Positions 7,137 through 11,146 of a stretch of DNA of 64,000 nucleotides are shown here, one piece after another. Numbering within the stretch: the first letter of the stretch is position 1; each line of letters starts with the position of its first letter. The notes under the pieces were generated by a model. That model did not search any database and had not been told where the DNA came from. It saw nothing but the letters and a program-made list of their open reading frames with translations. The stretch is from an uncultured Psychrobacter sp. (GTDB lineage Bacteria > Pseudomonadota > Gammaproteobacteria > Pseudomonadales > Moraxellaceae), in the NCBI RefSeq assembly GCF_947500265.1, contig NZ_CANMRN010000003.1, forward strand, positions 124,001 to 188,000. Reading direction: 5' to 3'. Made by a program: the position numbers and the translations under genes.

Positions 7137-8438
7137 ATGAGTCAATCGAATACTACGGATATTACGACCTATATGCAGTCTGTCGGTAAGCAAGCACGAG
7201 CCGCTTCTCGCGCGCTGGCTGCTGCCAACACTGGCGATAAAAACTCAGCACTCTTGGCCATTCATGATGAGCTGGTCAATGCCAAACAAGACATCTTGGC
7301 AGCCAATAAAATCGATATGGACAACGGTCAAAAAAACAATCTTGATAGTGCCCTCCTCGATCGCTTGGAATTAAACGAAGCACGATTTAACGGTATGCTA
7401 CAAGGTCTTAAAGACGTCGCTGGCCTTCCTGACCCAATTGGTGAAGTCACTGACATGACTTATCAGCCATCGGGTATTCATTTGGGCAAAATGCGGGTGC
7501 CACTTGGTGTAGTCGGTATGATTTATGAGTCGCGTCCTAACGTAACATTGGAGGCTGCCTCACTAGCACTCAAGTCAGGCAACGCCATTATTTTGCGCGG
7601 TGGTTCTGAAGCCTTTGAGTCTAACCAAGCCATTGCCAAATGTATCATTAAAGGTCTTAGCCATACTGATCTATCAGAACATAGCGTGCAAGTGCTACAG
7701 ACGACCGATCGTGCAGCCGTTGGTGAGCTGATTACCATGACTGAATATGTCGATGTCATCGTGCCACGTGGTGGTAAAGGTCTGATTGCGCGTATCAGCA
7801 ACGATGCAAAAGTACCTGTAATTAAGCATTTAGACGGTAACTGCCATACCTTTATCGATAGTGATGCGGACGCTGAGATTGCGATTAAAGTCAGCGTTAA
7901 TGCCAAAACACATCGCTACGGCACTTGTAATACGATGGAAACGCTACTGGTCGATGAAACAGTCGCAGATGAGCTATTGCCTAAAATAGCAGAGGCCATC
8001 GTCGCTGCTGATGACGCAATGCAACTACGCCTTGATGACAAATCACAAGCTATCCTAAATGACAATGCTAAACTTCAAGGTCATCTATCAGCTGCCACTT
8101 CCGAGGATTGGGATACTGAATATTTAGCTCCTATCCTAGCGGTAAAAGTGGTGTCAGGTATTGATGAGGCAATTGAGCATATCAATACGCACGGCAGTCA
8201 TCATACTGATGTCATCATCACTGACAACTACACCAAATCGCAACGCTTCATCCGTGAAGTGGACTCGGCCAGCGTAATGATTAATGCTTCTAGCCGTTTT
8301 GCTGATGGTTTTGAATACGGTCTCGGTGCTGAGATTGGTATCTCAACGGACAAAATCCATGCACGTGGCCCTGTCGGTCTCGAAGGTCTGACTTCACAGA
8401 AATGGATCGTCTATGGTCATGGCGAAACCCGTGCTTAA
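7137..8438 (+). CDS. proA: Gamma-glutamyl phosphate reductase
   Basis: 433-residue cytosolic enzyme of proline synthesis that reduces gamma-glutamyl phosphate to glutamate semialdehyde with NADPH. It belongs to the aldehyde dehydrogenase superfamily. The catalytic Cys is Cys264 in the motif [15 protein letters not shown], and the family motifs YESRPNVT (130-137) and LRGGSEA (153-159) are present. Length is normal (E. coli 417). AAGGAAAA is 9 bases before the ATG. The partner gene proB is not in the window. A terminator follows the stop. Confidence 0.96.
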
Positions 8439-8472
8439 TCATACCAGTATCGACTATCAAAACGAATAATCA

Positions 8473-8507
8473 GAAACGTCAGCAATTATGCTGGCGTTTC
8501 TTCGTTT
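8473..8507 (+). terminator. Rho-independent terminator of proA
   Basis: The 12-base arms 8473-8484 and 8489-8500 (one wobble pair, ATTA loop) are followed by TTCGTTT. It begins 35 bases after the proA stop and separates proA from the RNase gene. Confidence 0.8.
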
Positions 8508-8559
8508 AAATCATAAGTATTTTAGTTAAGGCATTTAAATTATAGGGAGCGGTACGACT

Positions 8560-9312
8560 ATGCAAAGTGGCAAGATTAAGCACTGGAACGAAGATAAAGG
8601 CTACGGCTTTATCGATGTAGATAATCAAAGTGAAGATGTGTTCTTTCATATAAGCAAAGCAAGACTGGCGAATCCTATAACGGTTGGACAAAGTGTCTAC
8701 TTTAACAGTGCCCGTAACGACAAAAACCAATTGAGAGCCACTGAAGTGACCTCGTCTTCGTTGAGCCTTGACCAAGATACTGCATCAGATGTTCCAAGCT
8801 ATACCCCTACTAATGCTAATAGAAATAGCAATCAACGCACTCGTAACTCAAATCGTAGCAGTCACAATAGCAGACCCAATAAAAGAAGCTTAGGCTCTAC
8901 GCTATTTAGCCTTATCGCTATAATCGCCGTCGCTTTCTATTTCTTTGGCGATTTAAATTCGACATTGTTTGCTGATAGCATCGAGTCGACAACGGTATCG
9001 CAAGAAGTCATTGATAATACGAGCCAAACTACTACTGCTGGTATAACGGGTGATGCACAGGTCGACAATACGATTGCGCTCATTCAGCAAGGAGGCCCGT
9101 TTCCGTATCCAAATAAAGATGGTACGACGTTTTATAACCGTGAAGGCAGACTACCCGCCCAGTCACAAGGCTACTACCGCGAATATACCGTCCCCACCCC
9201 TGGTGTCTCTCATCGCGGCGCACGGCGTATCGTCACAGGTGGTAATCCGCCTACCGTCTATTACTTGACTGTCGACCATTATGATAGCTTCCAAAGACTA
9301 CAGGTGCCTTAA
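8560..9312 (+). CDS. Cold-shock domain-transmembrane-guanyl RNase (RNase Sa/barnase-like) fusion
   Basis: 250 residues in three parts. Residues 1-65 are a cold-shock RNA-binding domain with RNP-type motifs KGYGFID and DVFFHIS. An Asn/Ser/Arg-rich linker (about 66-110) leads to one hydrophobic helix (111-129) preceded by RPNKR. Residues 163-250 are a guanyl-specific RNase of the RNase Sa/T1 family: GPFPYPNKDG, NREGRLP, YYREYTVPTPG, RGARRIVTG and VDHYDSF. The catalytic set aligns as Glu208, Arg219, Arg223 and His240 (Sa Glu54, Arg65, Arg69, His85). The Cys pair of Sa is absent. Positive residues before the helix suggest N-in topology, which puts the RNase in the periplasm. The next gene, one base after the stop, is a barstar-like inhibitor, which supports real RNase activity. 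The physiological role is unknown. Confidence 0.9.
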   Translation: MQSGKIKHWNEDKGYGFIDVDNQSEDVFFHISKARLANPITVGQSVYFNSARNDKNQLRATEVTSSSLSLDQDTASDVPSYTPTNANRNSNQRTRNSNRSSHNSRPNKRSLGSTLFSLIAIIAVAFYFFGDLNSTLFADSIESTTVSQEVIDNTSQTTTAGITGDAQVDNTIALIQQGGPFPYPNKDGTTFYNREGRLPAQSQGYYREYTVPTPGVSHRGARRIVTGGNPPTVYYLTVDHYDSFQRLQVP

Positions 9313-9313
9313 T

Positions 9314-9733
9314 ATGAAAAAAGCTGATATGAATCGAGAAAGTATAAACCAAGCCATTCATTACGTTAATCAAAGCCATGTTAATCAAGGTCACATTAAC
9401 CAAAACGGTACAGCACTGGGTACTAGCATTCCTGCGCAGGCTGTTACTATAGCCGTAGGTGACACGCTCGAAAAAACTGAGCTATTGACGAGTTTAGCTA
9501 AGGCCTGTGACTTCCCTAGTTATTTTTCACACAACTGGGACAGTGCATGGGATTGTCTAACAGACAGTGAGGCAATTCATTTAAGGCTTGATTTGACAGA
9601 CGTTAAAAGCATAAACACTGAGGACTTCAATGTCTTTAAAAGCATCATTGAGGATGCCTTTAGAGAATTTGGCAAACCACAATTGTGGATCATCGTGCCA
9701 TCTGAGGATGAAGCTTATGCGTTAGAAACTTAG
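9314..9733 (+). CDS. Barstar-family RNase inhibitor
   Basis: 139-residue predicted cytosolic inhibitor of the RNase encoded immediately upstream. The barstar signature FPSYFSHNWDSAWDCLTD (67-84) contains the equivalents of barstar Asp35, Trp38 and Asp39 (Asp76, Trp79, Asp80), and FRE (116-118) matches the barstar Glu76 region. It has an N-terminal extension of about 40 residues that includes three (V/I)NQ units (HYVNQSHVNQGHINQ). I chose the ATG at 9314, one base past the RNase stop, with AGG about 9 bases upstream; an ATG at 9281 inside the RNase gene is also in frame. The tight spacing suggests translational coupling so that inhibitor accompanies enzyme. Confidence 0.88.
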   Translation: MKKADMNRESINQAIHYVNQSHVNQGHINQNGTALGTSIPAQAVTIAVGDTLEKTELLTSLAKACDFPSYFSHNWDSAWDCLTDSEAIHLRLDLTDVKSINTEDFNVFKSIIEDAFREFGKPQLWIIVPSEDEAYALET

Positions 9734-9800
9734 TCGTTGAAAGCCTATATGTTGCAAGCTTGACCGCCGATAGTCACCGATAATTATTCGTCATCATAGA

Positions 9801-9855
9801 AACCTGAATTCGAGATAAAGCCATATTTATCCCGAATTCAGGTTAATTTATTTTA
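9801..9855 (+). terminator. Rho-independent terminator of the RNase/barstar unit
   Basis: Arms 9801-9819 and 9826-9844 pair at 18 of 19 positions with a 6-base loop, followed by AATTTATTTTA. It lies 68 bases after the barstar stop and closes the two-gene unit ahead of gltS. Confidence 0.8.
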
Positions 9856-9871
9856 TAGAAAGGATTAACCT

Positions 9872-11146
9872 ATGGAGATTACCTTAAACGGTTATTACAC
9901 CCTGATATTGGCCACCTTAGTGCTGCTGCTTGGGCGGTTTTTGGTGAGACGAGTCAAGTTTTTAGAGGACTTTAATATTCCAGAACCGGTTGCTGGTGGT
10001 CTGGTCGCGGCGATTGTTGTCTATGCTCTCAATATGGTTTGGGGATATAGTTTTAACTTTCATCAAGGACTACAGACCGCCACCATGTTGATGTTCTTTG
10101 CGTCCATCGGTCTGAGCGCTGATTTTAGTCGATTAAAAGCAGGCGGCACACCATTACTGATTTTTACTATCGTTGTTTCAGTGTTTATTGTATTGCAGGA
10201 CATCGTTGGTGTGGCCATGGCAAGTGCGTTAGGACTTGATCCTTTGCTCGGTCTAGTGACAGGGTCTATCGCTCTAACGGGTGGTCATGGTACAGCAGGC
10301 GCTTGGGGTATTACGTTAGAACAAGACTACGGCGTGGTCGGTGCGACGACACTGGGTATCGCGGTTGCTACGTATGGTTTGGTCGCGGGTGGTATCGTTG
10401 GTGGTCCTGTTGCCCGTCGCTTGATTAACCGACTTGGACTAAAACCAACGCCAGCCAACCCTGATCCTAGCGATATCGAAAAAGTTGCTGGTGCGCAGTC
10501 ATTATATAGCACCAAACACGATGAAGAGTCTGCAGGTAGTAATAAAGATATCTTTGAAAGACCTGATAGCATGCGCTTTATCACCGCTTCTTCTACTATC
10601 GAAACCTTGGCACTATTCGCAGGTGCTTTGGCTTTTGCCGATGTGATGGCCATCGTTGCTGAAGGTACATGGTTTGAGCTGCCTACTTTCGTATGGGCAC
10701 TGGCAGGCGGCGTCATCATTCGCAATGTGCTGACGATGGTCTTCAATTTTGATATGTTTGACCGCTCAATTGATGTACTTGGTAATGCGTCTTTAAGCCT
10801 ATTTCTAGCGATGGCATTATTGTCTTTAAAACTTTGGCAGTTGACCGATTTGGCAGGCCCTGTACTAATTATATTGGTTGTACAGACCATCATTATGATT
10901 ATCTACGTGTACCTCATTACCTTTAAAATTATGGGTAAAGACTACGACGCAGCTGTATTATCAGCGGGGCATTGTGGTTTTGGTATGGGTGCGACACCGA
11001 CTGCAATTGCAAATATGCAGGCAGTCACTGACCGCTATCTGCCTTCACCTAAAGCATTCCTAATCGTGCCAATGGTTGGTGCGTTCTTTGTTGATATCGT
11101 TAATGCCACGATACTACAGATTTTTACGAAGTTACCGTTTATGTAG
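9872..11146 (+). CDS. gltS: Sodium/glutamate symporter
   Basis: 424-residue inner-membrane carrier of the GltS/ESS family that takes up glutamate with Na+. It has two pseudo-symmetric halves of about five helices, each with the family's Gly-rich re-entrant motif: GSIALTGGHGTAGAWG in the first half and SAGHCGFGMGATPTAIANM in the second. The central cytoplasmic loop (about 195-235) is charged. E. coli GltS has 401 residues. GAAAGGA lies about 8 bases before the ATG. It follows the RNase/barstar terminator and has its own terminator. Confidence 0.94.
   Translation: MEITLNGYYTLILATLVLLLGRFLVRRVKFLEDFNIPEPVAGGLVAAIVVYALNMVWGYSFNFHQGLQTATMLMFFASIGLSADFSRLKAGGTPLLIFTIVVSVFIVLQDIVGVAMASALGLDPLLGLVTGSIALTGGHGTAGAWGITLEQDYGVVGATTLGIAVATYGLVAGGIVGGPVARRLINRLGLKPTPANPDPSDIEKVAGAQSLYSTKHDEESAGSNKDIFERPDSMRFITASSTIETLALFAGALAFADVMAIVAEGTWFELPTFVWALAGGVIIRNVLTMVFNFDMFDRSIDVLGNASLSLFLAMALLSLKLWQLTDLAGPVLIILVVQTIIMIIYVYLITFKIMGKDYDAAVLSAGHCGFGMGATPTAIANMQAVTDRYLPSPKAFLIVPMVGAFFVDIVNATILQIFTKLPFM

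What the first reader, a model, noticed from the sequence alone, without database searches (positions are those of the whole stretch)
8560..9733. Membrane-tethered cold-shock-domain/guanyl-RNase fusion paired with a barstar
Seen: a 250-residue protein joins a cold-shock RNA-binding domain, one membrane helix and a complete RNase Sa-type domain (Glu208, Arg219, Arg223, His240). One base after its stop begins a barstar-like inhibitor with the conserved Asp/Trp/Asp set. Known: barnase/RNase Sa enzymes are normally secreted and their barstars protect the cytosol; cold-shock domains bind single-stranded RNA; CSD-DUF1294 membrane proteins exist in related bacteria. Inference: this protein combines RNA capture and cleavage at the inner membrane, with the RNase probably outside and the inhibitor inside. 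It could act on extracellular RNA, in competition, or as a conditional self-targeting RNase if the domain stays or is released inside. I know of no characterised example.
Basis: partly seen in the sequence, partly recalled or inferred. Interest (0 to 1): 0.8.

Follow-up and report, generated by a model that had tools for sequence, protein, structure and literature searches.

The report
Cold-shock-domain-fused, membrane-anchored RNase plus barstar
A Psychrobacter bacterium carries a protein that joins an RNA-binding head, predicted to lie inside the cell, to an RNA-cutting tail, predicted to lie outside the inner membrane, next to a gene for a matching inhibitor; it is an unusual version of a classic enzyme-inhibitor pair, and what the inner head does is unknown.

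Summary
Window 8560-9312 encodes a cold-shock domain (CSD), a basic linker, one membrane helix and a complete RNase Sa-type domain; a barstar gene (9314-9733) starts one base after its stop. The pair is in 82 of 105 Psychrobacter genomes scanned, and no genus genome with the RNase lacks a barstar match. Catalytic residues are invariant in 77 of 77 aligned copies and the CSD is constrained as tightly as the RNase. Of 38 readable non-genus loci, 36 show no CSD; the two others, from another order of the class, share the fusion, and one of them has no detectable barstar. Charge bias (76 of 76) and relatives place the CSD inside and the RNase outside; if so, the two domains do not act on the same RNA once inserted. 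Three genomes deleted or broke the CSD region but keep RNase and barstar. I read it as a vertically inherited, tethered extracytoplasmic RNase with a cytosolic safety inhibitor and a regulatory or retaining CSD: a new variant of the barnase/barstar pair. Activity, topology and CSD role are untested at the bench.

The parts
8560..9312 (+). CSD-TM-RNase gene, 250 aa
   Evidence: ORF; Pfam CSD 46.8 bits and Ribonuclease 77.8 bits
8560..8754 (+). Cold-shock domain, residues 1-65, with RNP1-like KGYGFI and RNP2-like VFFHIS (motif names recalled)
   Evidence: Pfam; Csp structures E 9.5e-8, Z 11.4; pLDDT 89-96 by blocks over residues 1-60; median dN/dS 0.053
8755..8886 (+). Variable Ser/Asn/Arg/Lys-rich linker, residues 66-109, predicted cytosolic
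   Evidence: Net charge of residues 66-110 mean +4.2 over 76 copies; median dN/dS 0.335
8887..8949 (+). Single membrane helix / signal anchor, residues 110-130 (predicted)
   Evidence: Kyte-Doolittle 2.19 over residues 111-129; median dN/dS 0.019
8950..9045 (+). Acidic variable linker, residues 131-162, predicted periplasmic
   Evidence: Net charge of residues 130-162 mean -2.8 over 76 copies; median dN/dS 0.340
9046..9309 (+). RNase Sa-type domain, residues 163-250; E195, E208, R219, R223, H240
   Evidence: PF00545; RNase Sa3 E 9e-25; catalytic residues 77 of 77; RNase Sa2 Z 11.5
9302..9306 (+). Likely Shine-Dalgarno (AGGTG) of the barstar gene inside the end of the RNase gene; inference
   Evidence: Sequence; similar purine-rich stretches in most of the 12 relatives printed
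9314..9733 (+). Barstar-like inhibitor gene, 139 aa, with a poorly conserved N-terminal extension
   Evidence: PF01337 44.6 bits; barstar structures Z 8.4; N74/W75/D76/W79/D80; dN/dS 0.116 core, 0.411 extension
8474..8502 (.). Short stretch after proA, hairpin-like by eye, matched in several genomes without the pair
   Evidence: blastn of the window intergenic sequence to RNase-less loci; the terminator scan did not report it

Best explanation
A vertically inherited, exported version of a barnase/barstar pair. Shown by sequence: an intact RNase Sa-type domain behind one predicted membrane helix, a CSD in front of it, and a barstar gene one base downstream. Inferred: the CSD and basic linker stay in the cytosol, the helix anchors the protein in the inner membrane, and the RNase faces the periplasm, where it cuts RNA after G (nutrient salvage, or clearance of foreign or leaked RNA). 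Barstar, translated next to it, neutralises copies that misfold, misinsert or are not yet exported. The CSD is an addition to the ancestral anchor-RNase; it binds cytosolic single-stranded RNA or simply holds the N-terminus inside, and so regulates or retains the enzyme; it does not feed RNA to the RNase across the membrane. Which of these the CSD does is not known.
For: Domains and active site. Topology: net charge before the helix exceeds that after it in 76 of 76 copies; relatives in other genera mostly carry the same RNase behind a short hydrophobic signal-like segment. Inhibitor linkage: RNase and barstar in the same 83 of 105 genus genomes, adjacent in 81 of 81 fetched loci; outside the genus 17 of 21 RNase-positive genomes have a barstar, each beside the RNase by coordinates. 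Order of loss: 3 of 14 proA-gltS gaps without the RNase still hold decayed barstar ends. Vertical: proA, CSD, RNase, barstar, gltS in order in 66 of 81 fetched loci. Constraint: median dN/dS RNase 0.048, CSD 0.053, helix 0.019, linkers about 0.34 (pairs share ancestry). RNase T2 in 1 of 105 genus genomes.
Against: No activity, binding or localisation data. The CSD can be lost: G007 lacks the CSD by an in-frame deletion, G046 has a stop in the linker and G099 a frameshift in the CSD, all with RNase and barstar kept. G1088 keeps an intact CSD-TM-RNase with no barstar found, so the inhibitor is not indispensable there. Two draft genus genomes, G049 and G076 (84 and 85% complete), show a barstar frame interrupted near its start. 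22 of 105 genus genomes lack the pair and have no RNase T2 either, so such an RNase is not essential for Psychrobacter life and salvage is a guess. A loose small-x-Ala pattern follows the helix in 45 of 76 copies, so cleavage and release are not excluded.
Confidence: 0.6

Rival explanations
1. Conditional self-targeting (toxin-antitoxin or abortive infection): the RNase is held at the membrane and acts on the cell's own RNA when barstar runs out or the envelope is damaged, e.g. in phage infection; the CSD then brings RNA to it.
For: A barstar match accompanies the RNase in 83 of 83 genus genomes; barstar relics outlast the RNase in 3 loci; the CSD matches PADLOC CSD_V, 32.6 bits, and below its cut-off the NCBIfam retron Se72 effector, 28.1 bits against 82.
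Against: Mostly one chromosomal place and inheritance along the genus tree; toxin-first gene order; predicted periplasmic RNase; no barstar in G1088; no PADLOC match at E 0.01 other than the CSD.
Confidence: 0.15
2. Competition or effector toxin: the RNase is released or delivered to neighbours and barstar is the immunity protein.
For: The same RNase family ends long ORFs elsewhere in the family: 1469 aa in G073, 2144 aa in G148; toxin-then-immunity order is described for polymorphic toxins and simple barnase-barstar pairs (PMC3482391, passages seen).
Against: No delivery domain among Pfam or NCBIfam matches; membrane anchor; invariant rather than polymorphic active site region; one match per genus genome.
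Confidence: 0.08
3. The RNase domain faces the cytosol, so CSD and RNase act together on cytosolic RNA at the membrane and barstar is a true regulator.
For: Both domain families bind RNA (recalled); the CSD is as constrained as the RNase.
Against: Charge bias in 76 of 76; signal-like segments in relatives; an intact RNase without barstar in G1088.
Confidence: 0.07
4. The CSD is a neutral passenger left from a domain fusion.
For: Three genomes with the CSD region deleted or broken and the RNase kept; 36 of 38 readable non-genus loci do without it.
Against: Median CSD dN/dS 0.053, close to the RNase (0.048); RNP-like motif columns almost invariant; CSD in frame in 76 of 81 fetched genus loci.
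Confidence: 0.1

Closest known systems
Barnase/barstar and RNase Sa/barstar pairs (PF00545 + PF01337)
   Same: Same RNase and inhibitor families, active site and fold; exported RNase with cytosolic inhibitor is recalled for barnase and inferred here
   Different: Classical RNases are secreted without an N-terminal RNA-binding domain (recalled); here a CSD precedes a membrane helix
Short signal/anchor RNase + barstar operons of other Proteobacteria (G337, G557, G576, G711 and others)
   Same: RNase with a barstar beside it: 17 of 21 non-genus RNase-positive genomes have one
   Different: No CSD motif in 36 of the 38 non-genus loci whose frame was found
CSD-DUF1294 membrane proteins (family name recalled, as in the finding)
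   Same: CSD followed by membrane helices; one copy in the same genome (L142); a CSD-TM gene overlapping a DUF1294-like gene in Methylophaga and another MAG
   Different: No RNase, no barstar; its CSD is 37-41% identical to the RNase-fused CSDs, against 42-57% among RNase-fused CSDs of different lineages
Polymorphic toxins with a barnase-type tip
   Same: Same RNase family; toxin then immunity gene order (PMC3482391, passages)
   Different: No long delivery part, no polymorphism seen in the genus, mostly one locus

Membership tests
Microbial guanyl RNase (PF00545) | Profile match above the curated cut-off | tested here: met
   77.8 bits against 24
Microbial guanyl RNase (PF00545) | Catalytic Glu/His/Arg set | tested here: met
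   E195, E208, R219, R223, H240 in 77 of 77
Microbial guanyl RNase (PF00545) | Cleaves RNA after G | not testable with these tools
   Needs purified protein
Barstar (PF01337) | Profile match and fold | tested here: met
   44.6 bits against 23.4; barstar chains fill the top 15 rows, Z 8.4 at best
Barstar (PF01337) | Binds and inhibits the cognate RNase | not testable with these tools
   Asp/Trp/Asp set conserved; no binding data
Cold-shock domain (PF00313) | Profile match, OB fold, RNP motifs | tested here: met
   46.8 bits against 27; Z 11.4; motif columns almost invariant
Secreted barnase-type RNase | RNase exported, inhibitor cytosolic | tested here: inconclusive
   Charge bias 76 of 76 and signal-like segments in relatives agree, but no localisation data
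Toxin-antitoxin module | Antitoxin present wherever the toxin is | tested here: inconclusive
   83 of 83 in the genus, not in G1088
Known anti-phage defence system (PADLOC-DB 2.0.0 of 2023) | Both genes match models of one system | tested here: not met
   Only the CSD matched, 32.6 bits to CSD_V; barstar no match at E 0.01

The most novel reading that the evidence does not exclude
A transmembrane RNA-responsive enzyme: cytosolic RNA bound by the CSD (its own transcript, or RNA that accumulates in the cold or in starvation) controls where or how much of the extracytoplasmic RNase is inserted or shed, so that one protein links the state of RNA inside the cell to RNA cleavage outside it, with barstar as safety.
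Probability: 0.12. Interest if true: 0.75.

Novelty: new variant of a known kind. Interest (0 to 1): 0.5.

Why it matters
Barnase/barstar is the textbook enzyme-inhibitor pair, yet to my knowledge little studied in proteobacteria. Here the enzyme has acquired a tightly conserved cold-shock domain, by prediction on the other side of the membrane, kept in most Psychrobacter genomes scanned and shared with a second order. That raises a directly testable question: what is an RNA-binding domain doing on the inner face of an RNase that, by sequence, works outside? The natural CSD deletion (G007) and the natural barstar-less case (G1088) offer ready comparisons.

Tried and rejected
RNase T2 as a complement: I expected genomes without the pair to hold RNase T2 instead. 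Rejected: 1 of 105 has it, and that one (G079) also has the pair.

CSD taken recently from a free cold-shock protein or from CSD-DUF1294 of the same genome: not supported; the RNase-fused CSDs are on the whole closer to each other than to those (the ranges 42-57% and 30-46% overlap).

Independent fusions in Psychrobacter and in G867/G1088: unresolved, not favoured. The free RNase tree does not show the CSD forms as one side of a branch (11% of bootstrap trees have the CSD-less rows as one group); a tree holding CSD forms together fits no worse (AU p 0.62). It has only 90 columns and some long branches.

Promoter and terminator scan of 8400-9900: 6 promoter-like sites against 3.9 (sd 1.6) expected, 0 terminators. 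I make no claim on regulation.

Named scan of genome contigs with the G867/G1088 alignment: 4 loci, two of them Psychrobacter sp. I-STPA10 and I-STPA6b, two of them CSD-TM genes beside a DUF1294-like gene. It used two peptide patterns, so it does not count the fusion in named genomes.

Neither that paper's nor PMC12953519's main text holds the word ribonuclease.

Plasmid collection: 17 records match, none over 80% of the protein; 15 are RNase matches beginning at residue 158 or later, 2 are CSD matches; no fusion.

Rows dropped or not seen: in the dN/dS count L074 (frame broken in the CSD) and all pairs with RNase pS outside 0.1-0.5; in the proA/gltS tree L118, L135, L136 and loci without either neighbour; five loci (L163, L164, L166, L211, L212) whose frame my motif did not find; of the 38 places listed, eight had no locus and were not inspected; of the 22 genus genomes without the RNase, 16 had their gltS region fetched, the other six not.

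Full report
What is there. Window 8560-9312 is a 250-aa ORF, and a 139-aa reading frame starts at 9314, one base after its stop. Pfam gives CSD (residues 3-65, 46.8 bits) and Ribonuclease (165-247, 77.8 bits) for the first, Barstar (44.6 bits) for the second. The best solved relative of the RNase part is RNase Sa3 (E 9e-25); counting along the alignment to RNase Sa puts window E195, E208, R219, R223, H240 on Sa positions 41, 54, 65, 69, 85. The AlphaFold model has a confident CSD (pLDDT 89-96 by blocks) and a fair RNase domain (65-79), matching RNase Sa2 (Z 11.5, rmsd 2.2, 81 aligned) and CspA (Z 11.4, rmsd 1.6, 65 aligned). The barstar model matches barstars (Z 8.4, rmsd 2.6, 85 aligned).

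How common it is. The genus is Psychrobacter: loci L186 and L187 of the named collection, Psychrobacter sp. I-STPA10 and I-STPA6b, lie on contigs of the same lengths as those of G079 and G078. In 105 genus genomes PF00545 is found in 83 and PF01337 in 83, the same 83. One of these, G073, is different: an RNase tip on a 1469-aa ORF with a barstar match below the cut-off beside it. That leaves 82 genomes with this pair: the window and 81 loci fetched. In 81 of 81, RNase and barstar matches lie next to each other; the CSD is in the same frame in 76 (one of these, L074, has a frame break inside the CSD). Of 80 loci where the script placed a barstar start, 73 have exactly one base between the genes. 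In L074 no start was found and in L087 it lies 191 bases on; both are drafts 84-85% complete, and their barstar frames look interrupted near the start.

The five without an in-frame CSD: L064 ends at a contig end, L117 has a run of N, and three are real changes. L103 (G007) starts with the usual first residues and then goes straight to the membrane helix; L060 (G046) has a stop in the linker; L061 (G099) has a frameshift in the CSD. In these three the RNase and barstar frames are open. Whether the RNase is still translated in L060 and L061 is unknown: no ATG precedes the helix in their remaining frames, only GTG or TTG.

Selection. Median pairwise dN/dS (pairs with RNase pS 0.1-0.5): RNase 0.048 (237 pairs), CSD 0.053 (223), membrane helix 0.019 (207), linkers 0.335 and 0.340, barstar core 0.116 (210), barstar N-terminal extension 0.411. 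The pairs share ancestry and are not independent. The CSD is under about the same constraint as the enzyme, which speaks against a passenger.

Topology. Residues 110-130 form the one strong hydrophobic stretch. Net charge of the 18 residues before it is higher than of the 18 after it in 76 of 76 copies (means +4.4 and -2.2). By the positive-inside rule (recalled) the CSD is cytosolic and the RNase periplasmic. Relatives agree: outside the genus the RNase mostly stands behind a short hydrophobic signal-like segment (by eye and by Kyte-Doolittle, no predictor).

History. In 66 of the 81 fetched loci the order is proA, CSD-RNase, barstar, gltS (gene names recalled); the others lack one neighbour in the fetched stretch or have it elsewhere. 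Of 16 RNase-less genomes fetched at gltS, 14 have proA beside or near it with no RNase between; three of those gaps (L123, L131, L134) hold decayed barstar ends. On a proA+gltS tree of 94 rows, rooted at the midpoint only, 11 RNase-less genomes form one group (support 91) and the other 5 lie among carriers. The relics show that at least some absences are losses, with the RNase gone before the barstar. In G078, G079 and G088 no proA or gltS lies within the fetched stretch.

Beyond the genus. In 348 genomes of the family, only G337 (122-aa RNase plus barstar, no CSD) and G148 (2144-aa ORF) outside the genus have PF00545. In 390 of the order, three more, none with a CSD. In 369 of the class, 14 besides the window; one, G867, has CSD-TM-RNase with a barstar two bases downstream. 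In its order (32 genomes) G1088 has the fusion too, and G1093 a weaker RNase match. In 398 of the phylum, 34 besides the window, some of them the same genomes as in the class scan. Of 43 non-genus loci examined by script, 38 gave a frame and 2 had a CSD motif: G867 and G1088. The RNase-fused CSDs are 42-57% identical between lineages, against 30-46% to free or DUF1294-linked CSDs; the RNase tree neither shows nor rejects one clade (AU p 0.62). A single fusion later moved between orders is my preferred reading, not a shown one.

The exception. Of 21 non-genus RNase-positive genomes, 17 have a barstar, each on the same contig close to the RNase; G148, G1017, G1093 and G1088 do not. G1088 is the important one: listed as 100% complete (10 contigs), conserved active site, no barstar within 4-5 kb either side or elsewhere at E 0.001. 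An exported RNase could be tolerated without an inhibitor; a cytosolic one should not be (inference).

What it does. RNase T2, the family of E. coli RNase I (recalled), is found in 1 of 105 genus genomes, so this may be a main extracytoplasmic RNase of the genus; but the genomes without the pair have no T2 either. Salvage or clearing of RNA in the periplasm is my best guess for the enzyme. For the CSD I can only list options: an RNA-dependent brake or guide on insertion, or a bulky cytosolic stop that prevents release. A competition toxin or defence module is less likely: mostly one place, one match per genome, conserved active site, and no PADLOC match at E 0.01 beyond the CSD.

Literature. 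Simple barnase-barstar pairs are described as a possible incipient toxin-immunity order (PMC3482391, passages). Searches for a CSD-RNase-barstar combination, for barnase/barstar in Psychrobacter, for CSD with DUF1294, and for a CSD fused to a ribonuclease domain held no paper; some searches gave listings, of which I opened passages of PMC3482391, PMC8546975 and PMC12953519 only.

Noticed in passing
L118 3059-3310 (G073): RNase Sa-type tip on a 1469-aa ORF with a barstar match below the cut-off beside it: a polymorphic-toxin-like relative in the genus.
   Followed up: no
L033 1468-1752 (G000 contig 5): A second barstar gene (94 aa) in the same genome; PF00545 has only one match in the genome, so it has no partner of that family. 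Further barstars of this kind score highest in G041 and G025.
   Followed up: partly
L142 1438-2142 (G000 contig 3): A CSD-DUF1294-like membrane protein in the same genome; in Methylophaga (L188) and another MAG (L189) the CSD-TM and DUF1294-like parts are separate overlapping genes (DUF1294 by recall).
   Followed up: partly
L119 4822-5978 and L132 1676-2810: In G001 and G072 another membrane-protein-like gene (transporter-like by recall) sits between proA and gltS, where others have the RNase pair.
   Followed up: no
window 9800-9865: A palindrome-like stretch before gltS, matched in four loci that lack the pair, in each on both strands (L122, L131, L133, L134).
   Followed up: no
genus-wide: RNase T2 (PF00445) has no match in 104 of 105 genus genomes.
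   Followed up: partly
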